Assembly: GCA_963281255.1 (NCBI GenBank)
Contig: OY725491.1
Coordinates: 5,754,857 to 5,818,856, forward strand
DNA: 64,000 nucleotides
Source: Aphrocallistes beatrix
Lineage: Eukaryota; Porifera; Hexactinellida; Sceptrulophora; Aphrocallistidae
Reading direction: 5' to 3'
Shown here: positions 9,316 through 62,400 of the stretch, one piece after another
How the letters are laid out: each line of letters begins with the position of its first letter
How positions within the stretch are numbered: the first letter of the stretch is position 1
The notes under the pieces: model-generated
Told to the model about the DNA's origin: nothing
Seen by the model: only the letters and a program-made list of their open reading frames with translations
The model's database searches: none
Translations under genes and position numbers: made by a program

Positions 9316-9502
9316 ATAACAAATTGATTGAATAAACTGCCAGGCACAGAAAGCTAATCTTTTATATTTAGGGGTCTTTTGGCTATGGATCCACTAAGCT
9401 CTGAGCTCAGACGAAAATGCTGACTCATCATGGAATTATGACATCATTGTAACCTTTTGTATAATTAAAAATTTCAGTTTTTAGGTTAAAACTCAGCCAT
9501 TT
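9316..9502 (+). repeat. R1 repeat, partial copy
   Basis: Begins near AACAAATTGATTGAATAAAC and runs through CTGAGCTCAGACGAAAATGC to AAACTCAGCCATTTTAAGG, then switches abruptly to GAIN-exon sequence. The GC-rich palindromic end is missing. Confidence 0.7.
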
Positions 9503-9811
9503 TAAGGGAACAATCTACAGTTGCAACTGTTCCTTCAGCATTGGCGATAACACTAAACACATTAGAAAGGTTTTCACAACGATTGAGTGAAGAGTTAGCA
9601 AATAGTGAACTTAATTCTGTGAAAACTGTCGAGTCTCGATTGATCACAATTGTGGTACAAAACTTTGTAATAGAAAATAGTGGCGATAATAACGAACCTA
9701 AAGCTGATATTGTTCTTCCAAAGAAAAGTTCTAATAATATACAATATTCAGTCATGATAACATTTTCAACGAATCTTACCCTCGCTCTATCAACAGAAGA
9801 GAAATTTAGCG
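9503..9811 (+). pseudogene. Orphan GAIN-domain exon in inverted orientation
   Basis: On the plus strand it encodes TLNTLERFSQRLSEELANSE, ITIVVQN and SVMITFSTNL, closely matching the minus-strand GAIN exons at 37478-37792 and 16834-17142. A GT donor follows at 9812-9813 (AGCG|GTAAAT). The frame is open, but no partner exon follows on this strand and the 5' border is replaced by R1. The following 9930-10140 is the reverse complement of the gene C intron at about 36960-37180, so exon and intron were inverted together. Confidence 0.85.
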
Positions 9812-10229
9812 GTAAATACTACCTATTATGAGTCAATTTACAACAGCGTCTACATTCCCGCTCCGATCGGCCGATTTCATTCTCAAAATGCCAGCCTCTA
9901 CCTCCCCGCACCGACAATTACATTTACACAAATACAAATGACTTAAGGAAAGCTTAGTCCTAAATATTGGATCTTAGATATTAAATGCTGGGAAATTAAT
10001 TTTTGCTGTTTGTTTGTTTATTTGTCTGAATTAATCAAAGAACTGGAAAGCGGTAGGGCTATGAAAATTGACATGTAATAGGTGTCAAATTATGAGACTA
10101 TGATTAAGTTTAAATAGCTAGGTGAAAGTCTCAAACCTTTTCTACAAATTATATATGACTTCACTCTAAAAATAGCAACCATTGCACGTTACCAGAATAA
10201 GCTATTGTTGTTAATAATACTTTAAAGCA

Positions 10230-10620
10230 ACAACTTATATGTTTACTTTATCAGAACTTACAAATGCTACAAATGGAGAGTACCGGCAATCTATATACAG
10301 TAGAACTTCAGTTATCCGAATCTCTTGGTTAAACAAATTAGTACGCATATACAATTTGGAAATGATCTTACTTAAGTGAAGGGAATTGAAAACATAAAAC
10401 CCCCAAATTTCTAACTAATCCCCATAGTATGGTGTAAATTGAATCAAAAAAGTATGTAATCTATCGGAATACGTAGCACATCACATTTCTGGTTCGTTTC
10501 CCCACTTTTAAAATAGTGTAACTCAACTACATTATATAAAATATTCTCAGTTCAACATGCGAACTGAGAATAATTTATATAATGTGGTTGAACAAAACTA
10601 TTTTAAAAGTGGGGATACGA
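10230..10620. mobile_element. Tigger/pogo-like MITE fragment with a long palindrome
   Basis: Bases 10230-10560 match the gene C intron at 37860-38190, including the end TACAGTAGAACTTCAGTTAT near 10304. The copy then folds back on itself in an inverted repeat (10501-10615) instead of reaching the second end seen at 38296-38315. Confidence 0.7.
10501..10615. repeat. Long inverted repeat (arms of about 52 bp)
   Basis: CCCACTTTTAAAATAGTGT...AACTACATTATATAAA...TTCTCAGTTC pairs with GAACTGAGAATAATTTATAT...AACTATTTTAAAAGTGGG with few mismatches and a very short centre near 10558. Confidence 0.85.
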
Positions 10621-10639
10621 ACCAGAAATGTGAAAATAA

Positions 10640-33790: not shown

Positions 33791-34146
33791 CTATTTAGCT
33801 GATTCATACACAACTTCATCAGGGTCGATTGCCTTTTCGCTCTCTAAATTAGTCACATCTGCTAGATCAGAGTAGACTTCATCAACATCGTTTTGAGAAA
33901 CAACAGCTGATGGTGAATATACTGGATTCATGTGTATCTCAGTCAACATTCCTTTCTCAGCTAAGTTCTGGTAGACTGGAAGTTCATCCAATGTATCAGC
34001 GCTGCTAGAAATTGGATGGTCACATTCTGTGACACTTTGCTCAGCTATTTCAGATGTGCCAGCTTCAAAATCCTTTTTCTCTTCAGAAACAACCTCGTAG
34101 ATATTATCCTCAGCTTCATAGCAAGATGTATTTACTCCAGAGGCTT
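33791..34146 (-). CDS. Gene C last exon: tyrosine-rich tail
   Basis: 118 codons, TAG stop at 33793-33791. Motifs NIYEVV, LPVYQNL, NPVYSP, EVYSDL and VVYESAK. Acidic. Near-identical to gene D 45683-46038. Confidence 0.87.
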
Positions 34147-37100
34147 CTAGAAATGAATTTAGTTTGTAACAATAAATAATAAATGTATTGTGGAATTCGC
34201 TTATCGAGCAATCTAGTTTTGCTAATAAAATGGTTGCTAATAAGTTACTAATAAGTGAACAGAATTAACACAAAATCTTCACCTGGGACCTGAAGATTAA
34301 TTGCAAATAGGGCAATATATATATTGCTAATAAGAGTTGCAAATAAGCAAATTCCAATATATAATAGAATGATTAAAATATCTAAAGATGATTATATTAA
34401 TTCTTAGAAAATAATATTCATGTGCAAGCTTGATTAACAAAAAAAGTAATCTCTATTTGATTGATTCTGATTGATTTTAATTCGAAAAATTATATTTTAA
34501 GGATTTTAGTGATAGCAGTCACAAACATGTCGCGTGATTCACAGTGCTTGCTTCACAATCCTGTTGAAAATTAAATTATAATTTAGATGGTAGACCATAT
34601 AATGAATACATTTATATATCTGCATGTAGATAAATCATTTCCATATGGGGTGGGCATGAACCATATTCAAATGCTGATAAATATTTAATACTTCGGGAAA
34701 CACTGATTCTTTTATTTAAAATTTCATCATCAATGCCCTTACCATATGAAATAGTGGCAATATTTGTGAATGTGCATATTTTGCTGCAATTTTAAGATAA
34801 TTTATATTAGCACTCACCAATCGATGCACCCTGCAACTCAGATCTCTCACTGGTTAAATAACTTGCACTAGCGGTGCTGGGCATATTTTGTCCTGTAAAT
34901 TGCAAGATATTTGAATTAGCGATATTTTTCTTTTTCTTAAAAAGTGCCTGTACTTCTTTATTCCTTAGAACAACGACCAAGAAGAAAATTAATCCCATTA
35001 AACCGTTGATAAAGATAAAAACCCATTCAAGAACTGAATGCTGAATGGCAGCGTTGAGGATAAGGATTAACCAAGGCAATCCAAGCACTGGCGTCAGTAC
35101 CAATCCTGTAATGAGTGCATCTCTAATGACTTTCCTGGTATCCTTGTTTTGATCGGTGGATTTCGTCTGTATTATTCGAATTAAGGAGATGATGAGAAAC
35201 AAAGTATTGGTCACTATTATGCTCAAAATGGGTCCAATGAAAGCCCAAATGACACCTTTTGAAACGTTTAGAAAACAATGGCTGTTAATATTTACATAAT
35301 AATCTCTTGCTACAGCTATGGTAATGATTGGAATAAGAAGAGGAAATATCCAACCGAAAATAGCAAGATAGAGATAGATTTTCCTCGTAGATAAAACACC
35401 TAAATGAAAGATAGAAGAGAGTAATATTATTTTATCAGATTATTACAAGTAAATCTTGAAAATCATAAATTAATTAAGTCCAGTAGGTAACCAAGGTAAC
35501 CAAAATATTTCTGTTAGAATGTATCAATGTTATAGTAATTATCAAACTAACTTATGACGATCTTGTACATGATGAATATTCCAATACACAGAGTCCAGGT
35601 GAACACTGATAGCCAAGTGTAGTGCAGTAAGAATGCAATGGTCTGACATAACACTATGTTATATGTACCAACTTGAATACCAAATACGAACAGTCCAGTG
35701 GCTAACAGCATAGACAGACAATAGTTGAAGTAGATAATGTTAGCTTCTACCTTGAAGAATGCTTTACCAGCAATGAGGAAGAGAATGAGAGAAATTAGTA
35801 AGAAGATGAACGAGATACCGACAAATGCATAGCTAATAACTGAAAGTGCTATAGATTCCTCGAAGCCTTTGTCATTATTGTAAGGAGTAACAAAAACTGT
35901 TAAGCTTGTGAATTGTATTGAAATACAATTTGTGAGATTGGCTGTTTTTTGCACTGTGGATAGACCCTCGCTGATCCATCTTGTACCATTCAAGAACACA
36001 CATGTACTTTCTGAAGGTTGGTTAGAATACAAGTCAAATGAGAATGTTACCTAAAGTTTAGACATCAGTATTTTAGGTAAAATACTGTTTTAATCCTACT
36101 AAATAAACTAAAGATCAGATCTCAAACGATCTTAGTTATTATGGTCTTTAGATATTGTAATTCGAATACTTCAATGGTTTTACAAGATCTTTCGATTCTA
36201 ATATTTAGAAATGTATTTAATATGGTGAGTTTTGAGAAGAAAAAATTGTCCTGGCACGCAGCGAATATCGCAAATCAGGGTCCGCTGCTTCTGTATAATA
36301 TGTCTTCATAATCGATGTTCCATGACGATTTAGCACCCGATACCTTTCATTCCTCATGGATATATTTCACAAATCTATTGAATTCATTAACAGACATGAA
36401 AAAAAAGTTTCATTCGCAGTTCAAATTAGGTATATTTTGCAAAATTCCCCAAAATTGCACATTTTTTCACATCACAAAGAAATCTGATCCAATTGGTCCT
36501 CAAAATACACTGATCTGAACATCGTATATTTCTACAAATTTAGAGTGTTCGAGGCAAGTGTGTGTGCTAATTTTTCCTAGAATTTGAAGACTCTGGAAAG
36601 ATAATTCGAAAAGCAGTGGGCTCTGATTCGCGATTTTCGCTGCGAGTCAGGACACATTTTTTCTTCCCAAAAGTCGCCATATTAAACACATTGTAGTATA
36701 AAACTTACCTCTTCAGCTAATTCAACAGTTCCTGACTTTTCTCCTAAGGAAATAGTCAAGATATCACTACCTTGAGTAGATTCCCCAGCAGCTGGTACTT
36801 TGTTCCCAATTCTTCTAACAATTGATGTTGCAATCTTGAAAATGATATAAAAGTTATTAATTTGAAGAATTATTAACAACAACAGTTATTTTTTATTTCA
36901 AGCAATGATTGCTATTTTTAGATTGAAACCATATATAATGTATAGAAAAGGTTTGAAAATTTTACTTAGATATTCAAACTTAATCGTAGACTCATAATTT
37001 GACACCTACAACATGTCAATTTTCATAGCCCTACCACTTGCCAGTTCTTCGTTCAATTCAAACAAACAGACAAACAACAGCAAATTAAATTCCCAGCATT

Positions 37101-40100
37101 TAGTATCTAAGATTCAATATTTAGGACCAAGCTTTCCTTAAGTTATTTGTATTTGTGCAAATGTCAAAATAGAAACTCAATATTCTGACCATTTAAGATG
37201 CAATATGTCATGGCGTGATATACATTTACGAATTATGTGCTAAGTGTATCATTTGAATATATGCTATAGAATATTTTAAAGGAAAATTATTGATATTCAT
37301 TATCCTTTTATTTAGTGGACCTGGGATACCAAAAGAATCACTCATTAAACTATATTTAAAGGTATTTTAGAATATTATAATTTGAACACATTGAATGTTT
37401 TCCTTCATTATTTCCACACTCCCTGAACAGAACTAGTTTATCTGTGTAGTTTGTTCTATAGGTGGTATTTAACTTACCGATAAACTTCTATTATCTGTTG
37501 ATAGAGCGAGGGCAAGATTCGTTGAAAATGTTATCATAGCTGAATATTGCACATTATCAGAACTTTCTTTTGGAAAAACAAAATCAGCTTTTGTTTCGTT
37601 ATTATCTCCACTATTTTCTATTGAAACGTTTTGTGCCATAATTGTGATTAATCTAGACTCGACAGTTTTCACATAATTAAGTTCACTATCTGCTAACTCT
37701 TCACTCAATCGTTGTGAAAACCTTTCTAATGTGTTTAGTGTCATCGCCAATGCTGAAGGAATAGTTGCAACTGTGGATTGTTCCCTTTGTTCCTGAATAA
37801 GAGTTATAAGAAATATTACCCTCAAGTGAATAGAGCAAAATTATTTTCGTGTTTCAATCAATGTTTACTTATCAGAACTTATAAATGCTGCAAACGGAGA
37901 GTACTGGCAATCTATATACAGTAGAACTTCAGTTATCCAAACCCCTTGGCTAAACAAGCTAATACGTGTATACAAGCTGGAAATGATCTTATTTAAGCCA
38001 AGGAAATTGAAAACATAAAACCCACAAATTCCTAACTAATCCCAATAAGACACATCATACTATGCTGTAAATTGAACCAAAAAATTACGTAATCCATTGA
38101 AATACGTAGCACATCACATTTCTGGTTCGTTTCCCCACTTTTAAAATAGTGTAACTCAGCTACATTATATAAATTATTCTCAGTTCAACATAAATGATAC
38201 TTGCTATAGTAGAAAGTCATTTATTTGAACTCTAGTTTCCAAATTTCAGTTACCCGAATATTTCACTTATCCAAACCGCTTTAGGTCCCATCACGTTCGG
38301 ATAACTGTTCTATTGTACATATATGCAACACACTCAAATTAACAAATATAAGGAAGCAGAATGATCGTCACAAATTACAATTATCTAATTTTTAGACCAA
38401 ATTTTGGCTAAATTGTGTGAAACTTCTATAAAACATATTTTTCAAATGTACTTATATTTTTATGATTCCTTAGAGTCATAAAAATATAAGTACATTTGAA
38501 AAATGTTTTGATTATTTATTACAAACTCAAATTACCTGTGTCACAGCTACTTGTTCTGATTCTTGTATGGCTGAACTCCCATTAACGATACTGCTCAGTA
38601 ATTCCGTAATCCTCTCGGTTGTTTCATTAGTGAATGTTCCGTTTGTTTTTTCGATAATCATTTGTGTCAGCATGACAGCACTTTCCAATATTCTGCTTCT
38701 ATTTTCACTGTTGATATCAGAATTATTGTTTGCTGCATCAATTATAACTATTACCAGAGCTGCAGTTAATCCAGACTCTTCATCAGAAATAGATTCAGCA
38801 CTATCTATGTCATTGTTAATCTCATCTAATTCATTCTCTATAACCGCTGTTGTTAATGAAATTTCGTAATTTACAGATACAACATCTCTTCCAGCTGAAT
38901 TCTCTGCTACACAATAGAAAACTCGGTTGGTTGATAGGTCTGTAATGCTGATGCTGAGTATTGGTGAGTCAATGAATCTTGTCATAAAATCTCTCGTCCA
39001 GTATATAACTGGTGTTGGGATACCAGTTGCAAGACATTCAATGTTTTCAATTGCAGTGTCTGTATCGCTTAAAGTTTTGGTTATATTCATGCTGGGTGAA
39101 GTTATCTCAGGGATTTCTGTAAATATATAGAAAGTTATGAAACAAAATCTTGTATATATATGTACAATGTAGTTGCATTTTTTGTAAAATTTGGGCATGA
39201 AATCGATGGATTGGTGACGAATTTAAATATGATATTTCATTATCGCAAAATTTTAAGTCATTATCTTTTAAACTGCTTTCAGAAGGGACATTACTGCGTC
39301 CGACACCAACTAGAACTGTGCACCTATACTATGTTATATAATATAATAGTATAGGAAGTATAATAAAACATTCTAAGTTTGAAAAGATATTTGAAGGGGT
39401 CTCTCTCAAATTTATGCAAATATTTATGAACTACCCTCTCAGTACTATTCAAATTTTAGGTTAAAACGGTTGATTAGATGTAATGAACTGAGTAGCTAAC
39501 AAATTTTTCAGAAGAAAGATTTTGAATTATGTGATGAAAATAGTGCTACTTTTTAAAATCATTAGAATTAAGATGAGAAGGATCTAACCTGGTTCAGGAG
39601 GTGTGATTTCTGTGCATGTAGGAAAAATTGGGAACCATTCTCCATCGTCACCACATATTAATTCAGTTGAACCGTTTATCTGATAACCTGTATTGCATAC
39701 GATTCTGATTCTATTTCCTGCAAAAAATACTGTTTCATTTATTGACCCGTTTTCAACTGAATAAGGACGCCCGCAACTAACAATATTTCTAGAGTTATTC
39801 AATATGTCTTCAAATATTGCATTAAATTGTATTGTTTCATTAGCAAAGGAGAGCAATCCTTTAGTCATAGCATCATAGAGACAGGAGAATGAATTGCCAC
39901 ATAGCTCCTCAACTTCAAAAGTAATGTTTTGAAGATCTGGAATCACAAACGATGGAATAAAATTTGGTTTGGAATAAAAATCAAAGCTAAATGGTGGTTG
40001 ATATGTGAATAAGGATTCATCCTCATTTATCATCCAATGTAGACCAAATTTGTAATGAATATCCTGAAGAGAGGAATTATGGGAAATTATAGTACCATTT

Positions 40101-42985
40101 GGTAGCATAAAATCATCGATTGGGTCTCCATTAAAGTTTCCCAGAAGCCCATTAACGTTGTTTGCATAGTGTTCATCTAATTGAAGCAAAAACGCCATTG
40201 ATGTCGAGTAGATGTATACTCTTAAAGCAATGCCACGACTAAAGCTAATAATAACTTGCGAATAATTCTCTGCAATTTGAATTTTTGTTTCTCTAGCAAT
40301 GAAGTTCAATAATATTCCATCTTTCAATTCGAATACTTGATCATCAATGGATAGTTGAACCTGGTTTAGAAAGTTTCTCTCAATTTGTATTTTGCTCGAG
40401 TATTCTGTTCTTATGACAAATGCAGTGTATACAGAAGCAGATGAATTCTGAAATATTTCCATTCTCACTTGGAAAGTGAAGTTATTGATTGAAGATGAAA
40501 TTAACTCAAATTCTCCTGCCCCATTGAAAGTGTACTCAACACCGTCTAAACTTTTGAAATGAGGATCTCCATTTGTTCTAGAAGGTATCGGATGAACATA
40601 ATTTTTACAATCATCAGAAGGTCTGTACTCAAGATATACATCACAGTTATTGGAGATTTTGCAGCATGAATACCATGGTAACAAATCGTATAGGAAATGT
40701 TTGATTGGGCTTTTATCTGGACTGAATGTGTTAGCTGTACCCGTCCCCATTATATCAGTGTTAATAATACCATTTCTATAGCAACATTCCTGACTAGACC
40801 CACTCGGAGTTTGAGATGACCTGTAGCAAATGTCTGATCCGGGATGAAAGAATTCGATAAATGTATTTTCTTCAAAGAAATTACTATCACTTCTTGCTTG
40901 TAAAGTTGTACATGGACAATGAGGTGTTTCTGTAGGTTGAGTGGTTAGAAGTGTATTTGGAGGACAGTTTTGGAATGTTTCTTTGCTATTCGTTATTATC
41001 TTAAGTTTGCCTGTGATAAATTTATCACTTTTTCCTTTCATCGTATTAATCACAAAGTTTCCAACTGAATTAGTTGATCTTTCCAAAGACTGTCGTTTCG
41101 AAGAAGATAATGTGGAAATGTTAAAGTTCACTTCTCCTGAGTTCTCAATTTCATCGATGAGGATTACATTTTCCCAATTGATTGGATCGGATAATGGATC
41201 ACTGATGAACTGTATTCCCAAAGTTAACTTAGTCGAGTCGTTGAAAAGATTTGGATTCCAATTTAAAACTTCAATTGTGTTTGATGCAAAATCTAACACA
41301 ACATCTTCCAGATCTTGTGAAATGTGAGGAGTTAAGCTATCTTCATCTGCCACGTAGACTGATCCTGTAAAAGGAAACGAACTTCCGTTATTGGCGGATA
41401 TAAATACTGTCATGAATCCAACTTCAAAAAGTGGAGGAGTAATGCAAGATAATTCTTTATCTTTGATGTACTCAGCTTCTGATGTTGAATTTCCGAACTG
41501 ACACACAAAAGTGCTCACATTACTAAATAGACAAGGTAGTCGTAAACTCAGTTCATCTCCTCCTGCTAATCTTGTGAAAGATGGAAGGATAGTGGTTACC
41601 CTTTGATCGCTATTCAGAGAGAGCCCAGCAACATAACCATACGATATGTCAACTGTATAACCATATACAATTGCTGATATAGGAGAAGAGTTGTTCAATT
41701 CTTGTGTGATGTAGTATACAGCTTCTTCGTTTGGTAATTGAATTACAAGTAGATCATAATCTGAACCCATTATTTTACTTCCATTAACTAAAACTGGTAA
41801 ATGAGAGGCATTTCCTTCGTTAATTAAACCCTCATTCAATCTTAATGAAGATTTTTCGTCAGATTTCACAAGTATATTTACGAAGTTACTAAAATCCGTG
41901 CTAAAAAATTTTGATTGAGTCGGCGTAACGAATACTAGTGCTGATACAAACTGTTCTTCGGTAGGCACATAAATAACTGATGGTTCTATTGTAACACCAT
42001 TTATTTCGACTAAAATCTGAATCATAGAAGCTGGTTTTGAAGTGACAATGAGTCCATTACCAGATAAATCGAACTCACTGAAATTTCCCGAATTTAGTGT
42101 AATATTTTGACCATTGACATTGAATGAAGTATCATTAAAGAAGGCAATCATACGGTATATCGAAGTTCCATCCTGTCTCCCAGTTGTGGAGTAGAAATGT
42201 TTTGTACCCCAATCACTGACTGGTATGTTCTGCTCTAATAAGATATCGCAATATGAATACAGAGTACTAGTGCATGAATGACCGCTCATAACTCCTATTG
42301 GTTTATCACTGCTAATTATGCTTCCAGTTAAATCATATAATGATAAGATTTGGATTACTTCATACTTTGAAAGATATAGATTTAATGTATCACTGGAATT
42401 ATATTGTTTGTTATCGTAATAAACTTGAGACGTCAATTGAACTGAAACAATTGTATCATTTTGAGATCCAATAACCGCAAAGTATCTTCCACCATAATAA
42501 TTATGGGGTCCTACATAACTTGTAACAACATATTGAGTTCCGAAATTTGCTGTAGGAATTGCCAAGAAACTATCTGAAGTGTATCGTTCCAAACTGATTG
42601 AATCAACAGTTACTTCAAAATCTGCTGTAATTTCAACTGTCTTGAAACTTTTCTCTGTTCCAAGTACCTCTAATTCTCCTGGTATGTTTACCCGTTCAAA
42701 ACCTCCAGGTTGAATAATTACAGTTTTCATGAAGTAAGTGTTGTTTGATAATTTGTATGAGCTGTTTATCTTAACTTTTGTAATCCCATCGTGAAAGCTG
42801 GCAATTAATATATGTAGATCTACGTATATCAAAGATTGCCGAACTCCGTCGTTTTGTGTAAAGGCAATAATGAAATGTTTACCTCTCGTACTTGATTTGC
42901 AATTATTTTGCGGACATCCCATTGTCAGTAACATTTTTAAGAGAATTAACAATAGAACTGTATTTCTACTAAATGGCGGTTTCAT
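33791..42985 (-). CDS. Gene C: IgGFc-binding/AMOP/VWD/Sushi/Ig adhesion GPCR
   Basis: Seven exons, 5' to 3': 42985-39589, 39116-38536, 37792-37478, 36834-36709, 36050-35552, 35399-34818, 34146-33791. They total 5856 bases, about 1951 residues, with all phases consistent. The ectodomain has no SRCR: a signal peptide, an IgGFc-binding-like region, a TIG-like domain, a stretch like the region before AMOP in Mesh/SUSD2, then AMOP, VWD, Sushi and Ig. GAIN, GPS, seven helices and a tyrosine-rich tail follow, related in sequence to genes B, D and E. Predicted cell-surface adhesion receptor. The GPS has QFT where HLT or HFT stands in the paralogs, so self-cleavage is doubtful. The TM7-proximal tail lacks 14 residues present in gene D. 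The GPCR half and ectodomain meet at a phase-1 intron, a plausible domain-swap point. Confidence 0.85.
34187..34358. mobile_element. Small MITE-like element in a gene C intron
   Basis: Imperfect inverted ends ATTGTGGAATTCGCTTAT and ATAAGCAAATTCCAAT with CTAATAA/TTGCTAAT repeats inside. The matching gene D intron has no such insert. Confidence 0.55.
34818..35399 (-). CDS. Gene C exon: TM4-TM7
   Basis: STRKIYLYLAIFGWIFPLL, SHCFLNVSKGVIWAFIGP, LITGLVLTPVLGLPWLILIL, FINGLMGLIFFLVVVLRNKE. Compared with gene D (624 bases) it is 42 bases shorter: the FKKTNTLERQLKKE segment is missing, in frame. Confidence 0.9.
35552..36050 (-). CDS. Gene C exon: GPS motif and TM1-TM3
   Basis: CVFLNGTRWISEGL ... 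NCISIQFTSLTVF. The residue two before the expected cut is Gln (codon at 35915-35913) instead of the catalytic His. Like its paralogs it also lacks the second GPS cysteine pair. TM1-TM3 are otherwise intact. Confidence 0.9.
36211..36690. mobile_element. Foldback-type element in a gene C intron
   Basis: Inverted arms of about 75 bases: GTATTTAATATGGTGAG ... GAAGAAAAAATTGTCCTGG ... CGCAGCGAATATCGC against the mirrored GCGATTTTCGCTGCG ... AGGACACATTTTTTCTTC ... CCATATTAAACAC. The matching gene D intron (47812-48135) lacks it. Confidence 0.8.
36709..36834 (-). CDS. Gene C exon: short GAIN exon
   Basis: 42 codons, IATSIVRRIGNKVPAAGEST then GSDILTISLGEKSGTVELAE. Phase 0-0. The gene D counterpart differs by a few residues. 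Confidence 0.85.
36835..37477. other. Gene C intron inside the GAIN domain
   Basis: 643 bases. Its left part recurs after the gene D GAIN exon (48262-48600), and its central part recurs inverted at 9930-10140. No transposon end is seen. Confidence 0.5.
37478..37792 (-). CDS. Gene C exon: GAIN domain, central
   Basis: 105 codons with ALAMTLNTLERFSQRLSEEL, NVSIENSGDNNETKAD and SAMITFSTNLALAL. Closest relative is the inverted orphan exon at 9503-9811. Confidence 0.87.
37919..38315. mobile_element. Tigger/pogo-like MITE (about 397 bp)
   Basis: Ends CAGTAGAACTTCAGTTATCC and GGATAACTGTTCTATTG are inverted, with TA on each side (37917-37918, 38316-38317). A partial relative sits at 10304-10560. 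Confidence 0.8.
38431..38506. repeat. Hairpin with arms of about 33 bp
   Basis: CATATTTTTCAAATGTACTT ... ATATTTTTATGA faces TCATAAAAATATAAGTACAT ... TTGAAAAATG with one mismatch, across a loop of about 9 bases. Lies just 3' of the Ig/GAIN exon on the minus strand. Confidence 0.85.
38536..39116 (-). CDS. Gene C exon: Ig domain and GAIN start
   Basis: An Ig C2-like fold (ECLATGIPTPVIYWTRD, RVFYCVAENSAGRD) followed by GAIN helices (NELDEINNDIDSAESISDEE, ERITELLSSIVNGSSA). Same layout as gene E 52708-53294. Confidence 0.88.
39117..39588. other. Gene C intron between the ectodomain exon and the Ig exon
   Basis: 472 bases, AT-rich. I see no element in it. Confidence 0.45.
39589..42985 (-). CDS. 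Gene C exon 1: signal peptide to Sushi domain in one 3.4-kb exon
   Basis: 1132 codons, start at 42985. Residues 1-24: leader (VLLLILLKMLLTMG). About 60-460: IgGFc-binding-like (IPTANFGTQYVVTSYVG, KPIGVMSGHSCT, QNIPVSDWGTKHF). About 461-550: TIG-like (CQFGNST, LSCITPPL). About 560-670: Mesh/SUSD2-like NWNPNLFN region. About 690-800: AMOP (CYRSSQTPSGSSQECCY, CCKISNNCD). About 800-965: VWD (NGDPHFKSLDGVEYTFNGAG, GLLGNFNGDPIDDF). About 1065-1127: Sushi (VSCGRPYSVENGS, ICGDDGEWFPIFPTC). Many N-x-S/T sites. The long single exon contrasts with the SRCR genes. Domain names come from motif reading, with no profile search. Confidence 0.85.
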
Positions 42986-44599: not shown

Positions 44600-45460
44600 T
44601 ATTATTTAAAATGTAATAGTTTTTGAAGAATGCAGTGAATAATGTAAAAAGGAAGATACTTAGTAATGATAAGATTGGTGACTAATTAGGATATTAATGC
44701 TAGCATATGCGTATAGTAGAGTCTTCTACAAAACAGAAGGATCTCATTCTAGATTATTCGAGCGCCAGCTACTGTTCAAACATATATGGTATATATACAT
44801 ATGATGGAAACTCATAAAATACTTAGATTATCACTTCCAAATTGTGAAAATCGGATTCTACATATTAAGATTACCTAGATAATTGACAGCTCGCTCTTAG
44901 CTTAAAACAAGTTTTTTTCAATAGATGCGAAAATAGGTATATATCAATATTTAATAGCTCATAAAATATTCATATTATTATTTTCAAAAAAGAAAAACGG
45001 AATCTATATATTAAAATATTCTATATTAGCCGTTGAGGACTCGCTTTAAGCTCAAAATTCGAGTTTTCAAAATGTGTGAAAATATGTATATGTATAAGAT
45101 GTATCTTTCGCTGCCCTGGTTAATGTTCGCTTATAAAGAAGCATCATCGATCTGTCGCCATATTTTCCTCATTGTAACATGACATTTAATTAGTTGACTT
45201 AACTAGAAGGGATATCAAATATCTTGTGCGTATTATTGCGAGTGTGTTTAATCTTTTTAATTCCAGTGGTGCTCCAACTATCCTTACAAATGATTTATTC
45301 TTATTTTACAGTGAGCACTACTAATTCGCACCACATACTACAGAAGTTCATTGAATATAAATAATGATTAGTGTATGGGGAACATATATACACTGAGCTA
45401 GGGAATGATCGTGATGTTTACTTGTTTTGATTCACTCTTAGAATCATTTGACTTAAGTTA
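44600..45460. other. Intergenic stretch, AT-rich, no gene recognised
   Basis: Contains two loosely related blocks (about 44850-44940 and 44990-45080, around GACTCGCTTTAAGCTC / AGCTCGCTCTTAGCTT). Bases 45100-45420 resemble the gene A/B flank around 7480-7780. No exon is seen. Confidence 0.4.
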
Positions 45461-45682
45461 ATCTACCATAGTATAGTCGGCAACCTGAGACATGTGATAC
45501 ACTTCTCAACACACAAATGAGCATCCATAACTCGCAGAAAAATAACAAAATAGTAAAGTATACAGTCAGTTAACAGAATGAAAAAGGTTATAGTTCAACC
45601 TAGGTTTTTAGAGGCCTAAAATACAAGAGTCATTGATTAATGCTCAAAGCGAGTTTATGGAATAAAACACTCAAGAAGCTTC

Positions 45683-46038
45683 CTATTTAGCTGATTCATA
45701 CACAGCTTCATCAGGGGCGATTGCTTTTTCGCTCTCTAAATTAGTTACATCTGCAAGATCAGAGTAGAGTTCATCAACATCGTTTTGAGAAACAACAGCT
45801 GATGGTGAATATACTGGATTAATGTGTATCTCAGTCAACATTCCTTTCTCAGCTAAGTTCTGGTAGACTGGAAGTTCATCCAATGTATCGGCGCTGCTAT
45901 AAATTGCATAGTTACATCTTGTGATACTTTGCTCAGTTATTTCAGATGTGCCAGCTTCGAAATCCTTTTTTTCTTTAGAAACAATTTCGTAGATATTATC
46001 CTTAGCTTCATAGCAAGATGTGTATACTTCACAGGCTT
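45683..46038 (-). CDS. Gene D tail exon
   Basis: 118 codons and TAG stop at 45685-45683. NIYEIV, LPVYQNL, NPVYSP, ELYSDL and AVYESAK. Same length as the gene C tail exon. Confidence 0.8.
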
Positions 46039-48261
46039 CTAGAAATGAATTTTGTTTGTAACAACCTTATACACTACCCGGACAAAAGTATTTGCACACT
46101 TCATTCATTATCTTACGTGCATTCAATACTAAAATGGGTCTATTCATGAAGATTAAAACTCCGAAACGGTAAGTGATGCAACTAATCGGGTTCATTTGAA
46201 TTAGTTACTGTTGGATATTTCTAATCAATTACTAATTCCCAATTATTTCAAATTATCAATTACTGCCACCTTGTGCCACATATGTCCCTTTTTATCACTA
46301 TACATTATGGTGATGTACTACTCCTTGTGCCACAGGTTGATAATTTTACTCATTGGGTTAAACCAATTGTTAGAAATCTTCAACAATTACTAATTCGAAT
46401 GTGAAGATTTCGAATCTTAAATCAGACTCTTAATAGCTCTTAGAGTTTGAATACTTTTCCCTTCATGAAAAGATGAATTTAGAACTATTTGTATTTTAGC
46501 TGCATTTTTAAGATCATTAATATTAGCACTCACCAATCGATGCACCCTGCAACTCAGATTCTTTTTTCAATTGTCTTTCCAAGGTATTTGTTTTCTTGAA
46601 TCTCTCACTGGTTAAATAACTTGCATTAGTGGTGCTGGACACATTCTGTCCAGTAAATTGCAAGATATTTGAATTTGCGATATATTTTTTCTTCTTAAAA
46701 AGTGCCTGTACTTCTTTATTCCTTAGAACAACGACCAAGAAGAAAATTAAGCCCATTAAACCGTTGATAAAGATAAAAACCCATTCAAGAACTGAATGCT
46801 GAATTGCAACGTTGAGGATAAGGATTAACCAAGGCAATCCAAGCACTGGCGTCAGTACCAATCCTGTAATGAGTGCACCTCTAATGACTTTCCTGGTTTC
46901 ATTGTTTTGATCGGTGGATTTCGTCTGTATTATTCGAATTAAGGAAATGATGAGAAACAAAGTATTGATAACTATTATGCTCAAAATGGGTCCAATGAAC
47001 GCCCAAATGACACTTCCAACAACATTTAGAAAACAATGGCTGCTAACATTTACATAATAATCTCTTGCTACAGCTATGGTAATGATTGGAATAAGAAGAG
47101 GAAATATCCAACCGAAAATGATAAGATAGCGATAGATTTTCCTCGTAGATAAAACACCTAAATGAAAGATAGAAGAGAGTAATATTATTTAATATGAGAT
47201 TATTGCAAGCAAAATCTTTAAAATCATAATTTAATTAAGTCTAGTAGGTATCCAAGGTAACCAAAATATTTCTGTCAGAATGTATCAGTGTTATAGTAAT
47301 TGTCAAACTAACTTATGACGATCTTGTACATGATGAATATTCCAATACACAGAGTCCAGGTGAACACTGATAGCCAGGAGTAGTGCAATAAGAATGCAAT
47401 GATCTTACATAACACTATGTTATATGTACCAACTTGAATACCAAATACGAACAGTCCAGTGGCTAACAGCATAGACAGACAATAGTTGAAGTAGATAATG
47501 TTAGCTTCTACCTTGAAGAATGCCTTACCAGCAATGAGGAAGAGAATGAGAGAAATTAGTAAGAAGATGAACGAGATACCGACAAGTGCATAGCTAATAA
47601 CTGAGAGTGCTATAGATTCCTCGATAGGTTTGTCATTATTGTAAGGAGTAACAAAGACTGCAAAGCTTGTGAAATGTATTGAAATACAATTTGTGAGATT
47701 GGAGGTTTTTTGCTCTGTAGATAGACCCTCGCTGATCCATCTTGTACCATCCAAGAACACACATGTACTTTCTGAAGGTTGGTTAGAATACACATCAAAT
47801 GAGAATGTTACCTAAAGTTTGGACTGATCAGTATTTTAGGTTAAAATACTGTTTTAATTCTCCTAGATAAAAATAATGTTTTTAAAGTTTCTAATCTTCA
47901 TTTGCAATTTATTATTCCCAAAAATGTTGGTTTCATCTCAGGTTATCACTCACGACAGACAACTCTAAAACTATTGACGAACTTGCATTTATACAATTGA
48001 AGATTTGCAATAATAAATAACATGCGTATGGGCTACAAATATGATTTTACATAGGAATTCCGTCTGGTTTCCTTTCTATAAATAGAAAAAGCAGAATTAA
48101 TTAATTGCCATTTCCAAATAAAGTATAAAACTTACCTCTTCAGCTAATTCAACAATTCCTGACTTTCCTCCTAAGGAAATAGTCAAGATATCACTACCTT
48201 GAGTAGATTCCCCAGCAGCTGGTACTTTGCTCTCAATTCTTCTAACAATTGATGTTGCAAT
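45683..48261 (-). CDS. Gene D: headless aGPCR copy (GPS, seven helices, tail)
   Basis: Four exons, 5' to 3': 48261-48136, 47811-47313, 47157-46534, 46038-45683. They total 1605 bases, all in frame with intact splice borders. They correspond one to one to the last four exons of gene C and are very similar. The GPS keeps His (IHFTSFAVF) and the tail keeps all tyrosine motifs. Intron similarity to gene C continues upstream to about 48600 and then stops: no central GAIN exon, Ig or ectodomain is found before gene E's tail at 50077. Either a 5'-truncated pseudogene that has not yet decayed, or an alternative 3' cassette spliced to the upstream gene E (both junctions are phase 0). Not expected to make a complete receptor alone. 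Confidence 0.75.
46071..46465. mobile_element. Tc1/mariner-like MITE in a gene D intron
   Basis: Left end CACTACCCGGACAAAAGTAT. The right side GAATACTTTTCCCTTCATG is only partly inverted to it. Interior motifs are shared with 26020-26283. Gene C's matching intron lacks it. The right border is approximate. Confidence 0.6.
46534..47157 (-). CDS. Gene D exon: TM4-TM7
   Basis: 208 codons. WAFIGP loop motif, VLTPVLGLPWLILILNV and NGLMGLIFFLVVVL. Retains the RFKKTNTLERQLKKE segment that gene C lost. Confidence 0.85.
47313..47811 (-). CDS. Gene D exon: GPS motif and TM1-TM3
   Basis: CVFLDGTRWISEGL ... NCISIHFTSFAVF. His codon at 47676-47674, so a cleavage-competent motif by its key residues. TM1-TM3 nearly identical to gene C. 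Confidence 0.87.
48136..48261 (-). CDS. Gene D exon: short GAIN exon (first retained exon)
   Basis: 42 codons in phase 0-0, with IATSIVRRIESKVPAAGEST. An intact AG acceptor follows at 48262-48263 on the plus strand (CT), so it could receive a splice from an upstream phase-0 donor. Confidence 0.8.
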
Positions 48262-48983
48262 CTTGAAAAAGATATATAAGTTATTGCTTTGAAGTATTAT
48301 TTACAACAACAGCTTATTCTGGTTTATTGCAATGATTGCTATTTTAGAGTGAAACCATATATAATGTATAGAAAAGTTTTGAAAATTTCACTTAGATATT
48401 CAAACTTAATCGTAGACTCATAGTTTGACATCTACAACATGTCAATTTTCATAGCTCTACCACTTGCAATTTCTCCGATTAATTAAGATAAACAAACAAA
48501 CAAACAGCAAAATATTTATTTTCTAGCATGCTAGTATCTAAGATCCAATATTTAGGACCAAGCTTTTCTTAAGTTATTTGGATCTGAGATTTTATAAATT
48601 CTGGTGCCTATAAGTGAATATTTACTACAAAGCTGTGTCAGAAGACATTAATATTGGCCACCGAGTAGGAATTTGCAGAAAATAGGAATATTCCTCTTAC
48701 CTTACGCAAATTCATACTTGATTTGGAATATATGTATATATCAATATACAGGCGAATAAGTGTATGTTGTGTATGAATAAAAAGTTGACAATTTCGTGAT
48801 GAGTTGATATTCTCGTCCGAGACTGTTCGAGCCAGTATCAAAATACTCCGGTGTGCCAAAAATCAACTTTCTACAACAGGCAGTTTCCTTAATCAGCAAA
48901 GTATTTTGTCACTGACTCGAGCAAGTTCGAGTCTCAGGAGAGAATATTGACTCATTTTCACTTTCTCACTTTTTAAATAAATA
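48262..48983. other. Flank upstream of gene D
   Basis: 48262-48600 continues the gene C intron homology. About 48640-48900 is a degraded reverse R1 copy (GTGCCAAAAATCAACTTTCT, GGCAGTTTCCTTAATC). No exon is seen. Confidence 0.5.
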
Positions 48984-59400: not shown

Positions 59401-62400
59401 AATTGTATTCACAAAAAAGAAAAATGAATACCTGGATCTCCGGTTGGTTTAGGAGTTCTAGTCGGCTTAGTAGACCTGGTAGGCTTAGTCGTTGTTGTGG
59501 TTGTTCTTGTGGGTGTCGTCGTAGTAGTGGTAGGAGTAGTGGTTGTGGTGGTAGGAGTAGTTGTAGTAGTGGTAGGAGTAGTGGTTGTGGTGGTAGGAGT
59601 AGTTGTAGTAGTGGTAGGAGTAGTGGTTGTGGTGGTAGGAGTAGTGGTTGTGGTGGTAGGAGTAGTGGTTGTGGTGGTAGGGGTAGTGGTTGTGGTGGTA
59701 GGGGTAGTGGTCGTTGTTGTTGGAGTGGTTGTCGTTGTTGTTGGCGTCGTTGTAGTGGTAGTTGGGGTAGTGGTTGTGGTGGTAGGTGTTGTAGTCGTGG
59801 TAGTAGGAGTAGTGGTTGTTGTTGTAGGGGTTGTTGTCGTGGTAGTGGGTGTAGTGGTTGTGGTGGTAGGAGTTGTTGTCGTGGTAGTGGGTGTAGTGGT
59901 TGTGGTGGTAGGAGTAGTGGTTGTTGTCGTTGGAGTAGTGGTTGTTGTTGTCGGGGTTGTCGTGGTCGTAGTGGGAGTTGTAGTAGTGGTAGGAGTTGTG
60001 GTTGTTGTTGTTGGAGTAGTGGTTGTTGTTGTCGGTGTCGTGGTTGTGGTGGTAGGGGTGGTGGTTGTAGTGGTAGGAGTTGTTGTCGTAGTAGTGGGCG
60101 TAGTAGTTGTTGTCGTTGGAGTAGTGGTTGTTGTTGTCGGGGTTGTCGTGGTCGTAGTGGGTGTAGTAGTTGTGGTGGTAGGAGTTGTTGTCGTGGTAGT
60201 GGGCGTAGTGGTTGTTGTTGTCGGTGTTGTGGTTGTTGTGGTTGGAGTAGTGGTTGTTGTTGTCGGGGTTGTCGTGGTTGTAGTGGGAGTCGAGGTAGTA
60301 GTAGTGGGTGTAGTAGTTGTGGTGGTAGGAGTTGTAGTCGTTGTGGTTGGGGTGGTTGTAGGAGTGGTTGTTGTGGTTGTTGGTGTCGTAGTAGTGGTAG
60401 TTGGAGTGGTTGTTGTTGTCGTAGGAGTTGTGGTTGTTGTTGTAGGTGTCGTTGTTGTGGTAGTAGGAGTAGTTGTGGTCGTTGTTGGTGTTGTGGTAGT
60501 GGTTGTAGTTGTTGTCGTAGGGGTTGTTGTGGTCGTGGTGGGAGTTGTGGTTGTCGTAGTAGGTGTAGTAGTTGGGGTTGTAGTAGTAGTAGTTGGGGTT
60601 GTTGTTGTTGTTGTAGGTGTTGTGGTTGTGGTGGTAGGAGTTGTTGTGGTGGTGGTGGGAGTTGTTGTTGTGGTGGTAGGAGTTGTTGTGGTGGTGGTAG
60701 GAGTTGTTGTGGTGGTGGTGGGAGTTGTTGTTGTGGTGGTAGGAGTTGTTGTGGTGGTGGTGGGAGTTGTTGTTGTGGTGGTAGGAGTTGTTGTTGTGGT
60801 GGTAGGAGTTGTTGTGGTGGTGGTGGGAGTTGTTGTGGTGGTGGTGGGAGTTGTTGTTGTGGTGGTAGGAGTTGTGGTGGTGGTGGTAGGAGTTGTTGTG
60901 GTGGTGGTGGGAGTTGTTGTTGTGGTGGTGGGAGTTGTTGTTGTGGTGGTAGGAGTTGTTGTGGTGGTGGTAGGAGTTGTTGTGGTGGTGGTAGGAGTTG
61001 TTGTGGTGGTGGTGGGAGTTGTTGTTGTGGTGGTAGGAGTTGTTGTGGTGGTGGTAGGAGTTGTTGTGGTGGTGGTGGGAGTTGTTGTGGTGGTGGTGGT
61101 GGGAGTTGTTGTTGTGGTGGTAGGAGTTGTTGTGGTGGTGGTAGGAGTTGTTGTGGTGGTGGTGGGAGTTGTTGTGGTGGTGGTAGGAGTTGTTGTGGTG
61201 GTGGTAGGAGTTGTTGTGGTGGTGGTGGGAGTTGTTGTGGTGGTGGTGGGAGTTGTTGTGGTGGTGGTGGGAGTTGTTGTGGTGGTGGTGGGAGTTGTTG
61301 TGGTGGTGGTGGGAGTTGTTGTGGTGGTGGTAGGAGTTGTTGTGGTGGTGGTGGGAGTTGTTGTTGTGGTCGTAGGAGTTGTAGTTGTGGTCGTGGGAGT
61401 TGTAGTTGTGGTCGTGGGAGTTGTAGTTGTGGTCGTGGGAGTTGTAGTTGTGGTCGTGGGAGTTGTGGTTGTGGTGGTAGGAGTTGTGGTTGTGGTGGTA
61501 GGAGTTGTGGTTGTGGTGGTAGGAGTTGTGGTTGTGGTAGTGGGAGTTGTAGTTGTAGTGGTTGCGGTAGTTGTTCTAGTTGTTGTAACGGTTGTGGTTG
61601 TTGCGGTAGTTGTTGGTATTCTCGGTGAACATGCAATGTAGACGTGTTCTCCTCTACCACAATTTGGTCTCTTTGAATGATCACATTCCAATAGTCTTGA
61701 TTCATCTCCATTACAGTTTACATCATCAAGTAAGAACTGAATGAATCGTTGGTTCACTATGACACCTGTCCTGAATTCGATCAAGGATCCTAAGTCCAGT
61801 TGTCGACAGACAATCTCACTTTCTACTCTACCCCATCTATCATCACATACAAAGCCCCACTCATTCAGATACACTTCCAGTACTCCACTATCGCCGTTAC
61901 TCAACCGAATGTCTCCAAAATCTAAACAAAATGAGATATTTTAAATGAGATTATATTGAGAGCAAGTTTACTTATTCATAAATTCTAACTAATATATAAT
62001 TGATATTACAAAATGTAATTGAAGATCTACTAACCTGGGCGATTGCACTGGACTTGTACGACGGTATCCGATGAACATGTAGCTTGCTCAGAAGCACAAT
62101 CACACAGTGTGACTTCATCACCATTACAATCGAAATCTTTCTGTAGTATTGGGAGGAAGGAAGTAGTGATATTAGTTATAGGAACAGTTGTAACGCTTAA
62201 AGCTGTAGTCCCATCGTTTTCTCTACACACTACATCTGCATTTTCTTGAGTAAAGTCATCTCCGCAAAGATAATACCATCCATTTTCGAAATAGCGCACA
62301 ATTTGAGGATAGGAAACAGCATTAGGGGCATATGACTGGCATCCATCTGCAAAAGAGATAGGTTAAATTGTCTCGTCTAGCTTTCAGTTACAAAGTATAT

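What the first reader, a model, noticed from the sequence alone, without database searches (positions are those of the whole stretch)
33791..42985. Gene C joins a Mesh/SUSD2-like ectodomain to an adhesion GPCR
IgGFc-binding-like, TIG-like, AMOP, VWD and Sushi parts in one 3.4-kb exon precede Ig, GAIN, GPS and seven helices. AMOP-VWD-Sushi combinations are known from junction or mucin-type proteins (Mesh, SUSD2, MUC4), not as aGPCR ectodomains to my knowledge. The GPCR half is clearly paralogous to the neighbouring SRCR receptors, so the locus has swapped ectodomains at a phase-1 intron next to a shared transducer.
Basis: partly seen in the sequence, partly recalled or inferred. Interest (0 to 1): 0.85.

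Follow-up and report, generated by a model that had tools for sequence, protein, structure and literature searches.

The report
Chimeric adhesion receptor with mucin-type ectodomain
A cell-surface signalling receptor gene of an animal, perhaps a sponge, seems to have had its outer part replaced by a mucin-like sticky protein through exchange of one exon; it appears to have lost the usual self-cutting site of its family while keeping a different one.

Summary
The finding holds, with corrections. The join is supported without RNA. Three other loci about 85-129 kb away carry the same IgGFc-N exon (70-75% identical) upstream of FN3-Ig-GAIN-7TM exons with a phase-1 donor. Gene C's own donor is shared with two SUSD2-like genes on contig 13. 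The two halves have different histories. The IgGFc part groups with the FN3 types (100/100, dS about 0.35); the 7TM part rejects them (p-AU 6.6e-10) and sits with SRCR receptors. The nearest Ig-GAIN relative follows SRCR exons across a matching phase-1 intron. So an SRCR receptor's ectodomain was probably replaced. New here: gene C alone of 30 paralogous exons lacks the GPS -2 histidine (Gln instead) and fails Pfam GPS where 5 of 5 relatives pass, yet its VWD keeps GDPH. No transcript, second species or usable fold was obtained. IgGFc-binding already appears in a Halichondria receptor figure legend.

The parts
39589..42985 (-). Gene C exon 1 (3397 nt): signal-peptide-like start (by eye) and the whole IgGFcN-TIG-AMOP-VWD-C8-3-Sushi ectodomain, residues 1-1133; ends with a phase-1 donor CCAG|GTTAGA
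41660..42574 (-). IgGFc-binding N-domain (PF17517, residues 138-442)
   Evidence: E 3.4e-51
41378..41599 (-). TIG-like stretch (residues 463-536), below Pfam cut-off
   Evidence: 18.6 bits against 20.9
40634..40933 (-). AMOP domain (residues 685-784)
   Evidence: E 7.6e-10
40091..40576 (-). VWD domain (residues 804-965)
   Evidence: E 9.9e-20
40559..40570 (-). GDPH motif of the VWD domain (residues 806-809), possible Asp-Pro self-cleavage site; kept in the two contig-13 and two contig-15 rows aligned
39806..39919 (-). MUC4-type C8-3 domain (residues 1023-1060)
   Evidence: E 4.4e-7
39614..39775 (-). Sushi domain (residues 1071-1124)
   Evidence: E 3.5e-7
39117..39588 (-). Intron 1 (472 nt), phase 1, where the ectodomain exon meets the transducer
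38536..39116 (-). Exon 2: Ig domain (weak) and start of the GAIN-position region
37478..37792 (-). Exon 3: GAIN-position region
36709..36834 (-). Exon 4: GAIN-position region
35552..36050 (-). Exon 5: degenerate GPS and first transmembrane helices
35913..35915 (-). GPS -2 codon: Gln (residue 1519) where 29 of 30 aligned exons (all but gene C) have His
34818..35399 (-). Exon 6: remaining transmembrane helices
33791..34146 (-). Exon 7: cytoplasmic tail and stop

Best explanation
Gene C is one spliced gene for an adhesion-type GPCR made by ectodomain replacement. An SRCR-array receptor (SRCR repeats, stalk, Ig, GAIN, 7TM) lost its SRCR part at the phase-1 intron before its Ig exon and gained, at that intron, one large exon carrying a signal peptide and the SUSD2/Mesh-like block IgGFcN-TIG-AMOP-VWD-C8-3-Sushi. 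This exon class exists elsewhere in the genome without a 7TM. Proposed working, inferred: the ectodomain binds matrix, mucus, neighbouring cells or microbes; the GAIN-position region is not cleaved at the GPS, because the catalytic histidine is gone; the receptor therefore signals without dissociating there, while any cleavage occurs at GDPH in the VWD. Shown by computation: architecture, shared donor, conflicting trees, loss of the histidine, retention of GDPH. Inferred: splicing in vivo, direction of the swap, cleavage behaviour, ligand and signalling.
For: Open GT-AG model of 1951 aa. Domains. Three loci with the IgGFc-N exon upstream of FN3-Ig-GAIN-7TM exons on the same strand; one of them, L021, has a frame break in its GPS-TM exon. 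Donor at the same place and phase as in contig-13 copies 1 and 2. Nearest exon-2 relative (66%, C4:5166477) is preceded by SRCR exons with donor TCAG|GTAAAC and acceptor TTAG|GA, its Ig exon starting GITPKITSPSM against gene C's EIPEITSPSM. Conflicting trees: IgGFc part with FN3 types 100/100; 7TM part rejects FN3 types, p-AU 6.6e-10. dS 0.35-0.36 for the IgGFc part against all three FN3-type loci, but 1.98 or more, mostly saturated, in Ig, GAIN and 7TM exons against the two compared there, L022 and L023. Gln at GPS -2, 29 of 30 His; GPS Pfam absent in gene C, present in 5 of 5 relatives. A review says that mutation of the -2 histidine abolishes cleavage (passage).
Against: No RNA read or EST was available. 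Donor GTTAGA is not the full consensus. Intron 1 lacks AATAAA and ATTAAA, but so does the stretch from the stop to 33500, so that test says little. Pfam finds no GAIN. The clades tested were named after the trees were seen. The IgGFc tree has 9 rows and one long branch; with a tenth, longer row the branches around gene C were unresolved. The grouping of gene C with SRCR gene B is 90/85, not starred, and the ectodomains of most of the 30 tree rows were not read. The folding job failed (pLDDT 40.5), so the domain folds rest on sequence profiles.
Confidence: 0.75

Rival explanations
1. Exon 1 is a separate gene for a secreted SUSD2-like protein that happens to lie in front of an SRCR-type 7TM gene whose own 5' exons are lost or unseen.
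For: Close relatives on contig 13 exist with no 7TM match on that contig: copies 4 and 5 are single open frames ending in one hydrophobic helix. Without splicing, the frame of exon 1 reads one codon past the donor and stops (...EPG, TAG), so the product would be secreted. Intron 1 holds an in-frame ATG with a hydrophobic run before exon 2.
Against: All four IgGFc-N matches of contig 4 stand before Ig-GAIN-7TM exons on the same strand. Donor and acceptor are each homologous to junctions in the same phase. No SRCR-like frame is among the open frames of at least 90 aa between gene C and gene D; the genome SRCR list was capped at 151 matches.
Confidence: 0.12
2. Gene C is a decaying gene: the 7TM half is drifting after the rearrangement, and the GPS change is a symptom.
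For: GPS His, Phe and Ala are all changed in gene C; dN/dS of the gene C/gene D pair is 0.44-0.58 in exons 5-7; no upstream exons of gene D were found.
Against: Seven exons open with no frame break over 1951 codons; 7TM matched at 5.6e-29; ectodomain dN/dS about 0.2 against contig 13, though that comparison also covers time before the fusion. Gene C and gene D are about equally far from gene B in exon 5 (dN 0.106 and 0.097).
Confidence: 0.1
3. Assembly error or haplotype collapse joined two genes.
For: The cluster holds near-identical tandem copies (gene C/gene D, 91-92% amino-acid identity in exons 5 and 6), a setting prone to misassembly.
Against: Intron 1 shows no similarity to the rest of the window, to the 100 kb of contig 13 or to L021-L023, the only sequences compared, so the join is not at a repeat seen there; both splice sites fit, and independent FN3-type loci show the same kind of join.
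Confidence: 0.03

Closest known systems
SRCR-repeat adhesion GPCRs of sponges (Amphimedon Aq712029, Aq715659)
   Same: Same receptor class; in this genome the Ig-GAIN-7TM half of gene C is closest to SRCR-array receptors among those whose ectodomain was seen.
   Different: Gene C has no SRCR; its ectodomain is IgGFcN-TIG-AMOP-VWD-C8-3-Sushi. The Amphimedon figure legend, for a selection of receptors, lists EGF, fn3, HRM, Ig, SRCR and others but no AMOP, VWD, Sushi or IgGFc (passages).
SUSD2 / Mesh / MUC4
   Same: AMOP then VWD with GDPH, then Sushi (SUSD2, Mesh) or a C8-3 piece (MUC4). SUSD2 is cleaved at GDPH (abstract). The SUSD2 and Mesh domain orders are recalled, not from a call.
   Different: Gene C has IgGFc-N instead of NIDO or SMB (recalled) and is followed by Ig-GAIN-7TM rather than one helix. 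A single-helix form is read on contig 13.
FCGBP (IgG Fc-binding protein)
   Same: N-terminal IgGFc-binding domain (Pfam family name) and a VWD with GDPH; best PDB match of exon 1 is 8rde, best stretch over the VWD.
   Different: Only one VWD, plus AMOP and Sushi; membrane receptor.
ADGRD1 (GPR133)
   Same: Best solved relative of gene C's exon 6 (9iv1, E 3.1e-22).
   Different: Gene C lacks a recognisable GPS. ADGRD1's own ectodomain was not compared here.
Halichondria panicea receptor set (Front Immunol 2021)
   Same: The legend of its figure of pattern-recognition receptors, GPCRs included, lists Sushi, NIDO, IgGFc-binding and GAIN (passages).
   Different: The legend passages seen name no AMOP or VWD and do not say which receptor bears IgGFc-binding; the figure is not held.

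Membership tests
Adhesion GPCR (class B2) | Secretin/adhesion-type 7TM | tested here: met
   7tm_2 5.6e-29; best solved relative ADGRD1
Adhesion GPCR (class B2) | GAIN domain | tested here: inconclusive
   No Pfam GAIN hit in gene C, nor in the single exons of gene B, gene C and L022 at that position; position and paralogy only
Adhesion GPCR (class B2) | GPS consensus with -2 His (usual, not universal: uncleaved members are recognised) | tested here: not met
   Gln at -2; no GPS hit at E up to 10, while 5 of 5 paralogues hit; noncleaved receptors described in the review (passages)
Adhesion GPCR (class B2) | Long multidomain extracellular region | tested here: met
   about 1540 residues before the 7TM match, with five domains over and two below Pfam cut-off
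SUSD2/Mesh/MUC4-type proteins | AMOP-VWD(GDPH)-Sushi in this order (order for SUSD2 and Mesh recalled) | tested here: met
SUSD2/Mesh/MUC4-type proteins | Single transmembrane helix after the block (recalled) | tested here: not met
   Gene C model continues to Ig-GAIN-7TM; single helix read in contig-13 copies 4 and 5
SUSD2/Mesh/MUC4-type proteins | NIDO domain (Mesh, MUC4; recalled) | tested here: not met
   no NIDO match
FCGBP | IgGFc-binding N-domain | tested here: met
FCGBP | Tandem VWD-C8-TIL assemblies (recalled) | tested here: not met
   one VWD, no TIL
SRCR-type receptors of this genome | Shared Ig-GAIN-7TM ancestry | tested here: met
   the clade with genes B and D has support 90/85, not starred
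SRCR-type receptors of this genome | SRCR array | tested here: not met
   no SRCR in gene C

The most novel reading that the evidence does not exclude
Gene C moved its self-cleavage site. The GPS lost the catalytic histidine, while the incoming VWD brought a GDPH Asp-Pro self-cleavage site about 710 residues upstream, so the receptor may be a two-part molecule cut in its mucin-type ectodomain and held by a disulfide or by folding, with the GAIN-position region left intact. It would be a natural test of whether an adhesion GPCR can trade GPS dissociation for another cleavage, and of exon-swapping as a source of recognition diversity in a large receptor cluster.
Probability: 0.25. Interest if true: 0.75.

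Novelty: new variant of a known kind. Interest (0 to 1): 0.55.

Why it matters
The ectodomains of adhesion GPCRs are thought to diversify by domain shuffling (my general knowledge; a passage of the Amphimedon paper, also raises it), but the events are usually old. Here relatives of the donor, the acceptor and the product lie in one genome, and synonymous distances let the two halves be dated separately. Gene C also offers a natural receptor with no recognisable GPS beside close paralogues that keep it, which makes the question of cleavage-dependent signalling testable by comparison. If expressed, it would be an adhesion GPCR with a mucin/junction-type AMOP-VWD-Sushi ectodomain, for which I found no report in the papers searched (IgGFc).

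Tried and rejected
Structure prediction of exon 1 with eight aligned rows gave pLDDT 40.5 and was not used; no fold search was run. Relatives in other species: one scan each of prokaryote genome contigs and viral contigs found pattern matches (20 and 34 stretches) but no confirmed relative. These collections are not built for animals, so this says nothing about sponges. Rfam at its gathering scores found nothing in the window. NCBIfam gave nothing for exon 1 and one sub-threshold match for exon 6. Organism: innexin and Wnt models had no match, but no control genome rang either; a Wnt-less compact genome would fit a glass sponge (Oopsacas paper, passages), but identity stays open. Absence of a poly(A) signal in intron 1 was dropped as an argument because the gene's own 3' end lacks one too. 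A retroposed origin of exon 1 was considered but not tested; similarity between gene C and the FN3-type genes stops at about the exon's ends, which flank turnover could also explain. The 428-aa frame downstream of contig-13 copy 1 has only a sub-threshold VWA match and that of copy 2 none, so I do not name those genes' C-terminal partner; the collagen-like exon is read by eye.
Full report
What was checked. The window is part of contig C4 of a 100.5-Mb, 28-contig genome. The finding's gene was rebuilt from its sequence: seven exons on the minus strand, all with GT-AG introns, intron phases 1, 0, 0, 0, 1, 1, and a 1951-residue product. Pfam confirms IgGFc_binding, AMOP, VWD, Sushi and 7tm_2 and adds a MUC4-type C8-3 domain; TIG and Ig are below cut-off and GAIN is not recognised. 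The PDB relatives of exon 1 include FCGBP, von Willebrand factor, mucins and complement-type Sushi proteins; the best for exon 6 is ADGRD1.

Relatives of the ectodomain. A search of the own genome with the 1159-aa frame gave 27 matches. Five are on contig 13 (four along nearly the whole length, 61-62% identical, and one fragment at 56%); ten lie in a 7538-aa open frame on contig 15 with repeated TIG-AMOP-VWD-Sushi units; and, besides gene C, three on contig 4 cover only about the first 482 residues (72-75%). IgGFc_binding has ten matches in the genome: four on contig 4, four on contig 13, one each on contigs 15 and 11. AMOP has 12 matches, VWD 19 and Sushi 17; in each case exactly one is on contig 4, in gene C. 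No 7tm_2 match is on contig 13 (134 matches listed). Comparing these positions by eye, gene C is the only AMOP, VWD or Sushi match within 60 kb of a 7tm_2 match. The tool calls its counts lower bounds.

Is it one gene? The three contig-4 partial matches (L021-L023) are open frames with a hydrophobic start and the IgGFc-N domain, ending in a phase-1 donor (L022 and L023: GCAG|GTTATA, L021: GCAG|GTTACA). They are followed on the same strand by FN3 exons (L022: fn3 6e-10; three frames of L021 over cut-off; L023's is seen by similarity to L022), an Ig-GAIN exon, GAIN, GPS-TM and TM exons. L021 has a frame break in its GPS-TM exon and may be a pseudogene or an assembly error. Gene C's donor stands at the same place and phase as in contig-13 copies 1 and 2 (CCAG|GTAACT), which seem to continue to other exons; in copies 4 and 5 the donor is altered and the frame reads on into one hydrophobic helix. 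On the other side, the nearest relative of gene C's exon 2 is C4:5166477 (66%). The next exon upstream there is SRCR plus stalk with a phase-1 donor, and its Ig exon begins GITPKITSPSM against EIPEITSPSM in gene C. The three nearest exon-2 relatives all have an SRCR match about 0.26-0.5 kb upstream on the same strand. Gene C is thus best read as an SRCR-type transducer with a SUSD2-like first exon, joined at that class of intron.

Two halves, two histories. On the IgGFc-N region (9 rows), gene C and the three FN3-type loci form one side of a branch with support 100/100; holding gene C with contig 13 is 27.5 log units worse, p-AU 0.012. A first tree with a tenth, very long row (contig 11) left these branches open. 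On the GPS-TM exon (the best 30 of 94 matches), gene C pairs with gene D (98/93) beside gene B and its kin (90/85, not starred), and a union with the FN3 type is rejected, p-AU 6.6e-10. The groups were chosen after seeing the trees, and most of the 30 rows' ectodomains were not read. Synonymous distance agrees: 0.35-0.36 between gene C and the three FN3-type loci in the IgGFc part, but 1.98 or more, mostly saturated, against L022 and L023 in the Ig, GAIN, GPS-TM and TM4-7 exons (the GAIN part of exon 2 was compared with L022 only, and L021 was not compared there). The IgGFc part therefore moved between receptor lineages after they had long diverged. Since only gene C and the contig-13/15 genes carry the full block, the short FN3-type exon is most simply a truncated derivative; that direction is inferred.

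Cleavage sites. Of the 30 aligned GPS-TM exons, 29 have His at -2 and gene C has Gln; the first five residues after the site are TSFAV in 25 of 30 and TSLTV in gene C. Pfam GPS passes in genes D, B, A, L022 and L023 and not in gene C. The 2026 aGPCR review (passages only; the first 300,000 of 412,533 characters are held) says that mutation of the -2 histidine abolishes cleavage. GDPH is at residue 806 and is kept in the two contig-13 and two contig-15 rows aligned. SUSD2 is cut at GDPH (abstract). A study of FCGBP finds the cut autocatalytic and stabilising, and doubts that the SUSD2 deletion data show a function of cleavage (passages and the discussion section).

Prior art. In the library, no paper holds both AMOP and 'adhesion GPCR', and one holds IgGFc and AMOP, a mucus review by its listing. 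AMOP with GPCR gave five papers, by the listing unrelated; passages of one, a coral skeleton study, were seen. IgGFc with GPCR gave eight, of which only the Halichondria paper was opened. SRCR-aGPCRs are known from amphioxus and Amphimedon, both seen as passages. In the choanoflagellate survey and in the held part of the aGPCR review the words Sushi, AMOP, IgGFc, von Willebrand and SRCR do not occur in the main text. The Halichondria 2021 legend lists IgGFc-binding, Sushi and GAIN among receptor domains, so an IgGFc-bearing receptor may already have been drawn. Most subscription-journal papers and bioRxiv preprints are not held.

Limits. There are no transcripts, no named species and no second genome. 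The fold prediction failed. Verdict: very probably a real, chimeric adhesion-type receptor gene, a new variant of a known kind.

Noticed in passing
G000 C15:518184-540548 (partly L024): A 7538-aa open frame (about 22.6 kb without a stop) with one IgGFc-binding, ten VWD, nine Sushi and five AMOP matches: a giant mucin-like single exon.
   Followed up: partly
G000 C13:3158875-3196374 (L011-L015): Copies 1 and 2 have a phase-1 donor and seem to splice toward collagen-like exons; in copies 4 and 5 the donor is altered and the aligned sequence is read as a hydrophobic helix: a possible intron/exon switch between tailed and anchored forms.
   Followed up: partly
window 45399-48586 (-): Gene D, 82-91% identical in DNA to gene C from intron 3 to past the stop, shows no match to GAIN exon 3, Ig or the ectodomain; the duplication ends near 37155/48586, beside a dispersed repeat.
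   Followed up: partly
window 9490-10633: A GAIN exon 3 copy (81% identical to gene C) on the plus strand, next to rearranged pieces of gene C-like introns.
   Followed up: no
L021 7780-7840 (C4:5670.8 kb): Frame break inside the GPS-TM exon of one FN3-type receptor: pseudogene or assembly error.
   Followed up: no
window 59409-61940 (-): SRCR exon followed by a very long Thr/Pro stalk, mostly TTTTTTP repeats, in an 843-aa frame.
   Followed up: no
window 33791-34146 (-): The cytoplasmic tail holds three YxxV/L motifs, with similar ones readable in gene D; possible sorting or SH2-type sites.
   Followed up: no
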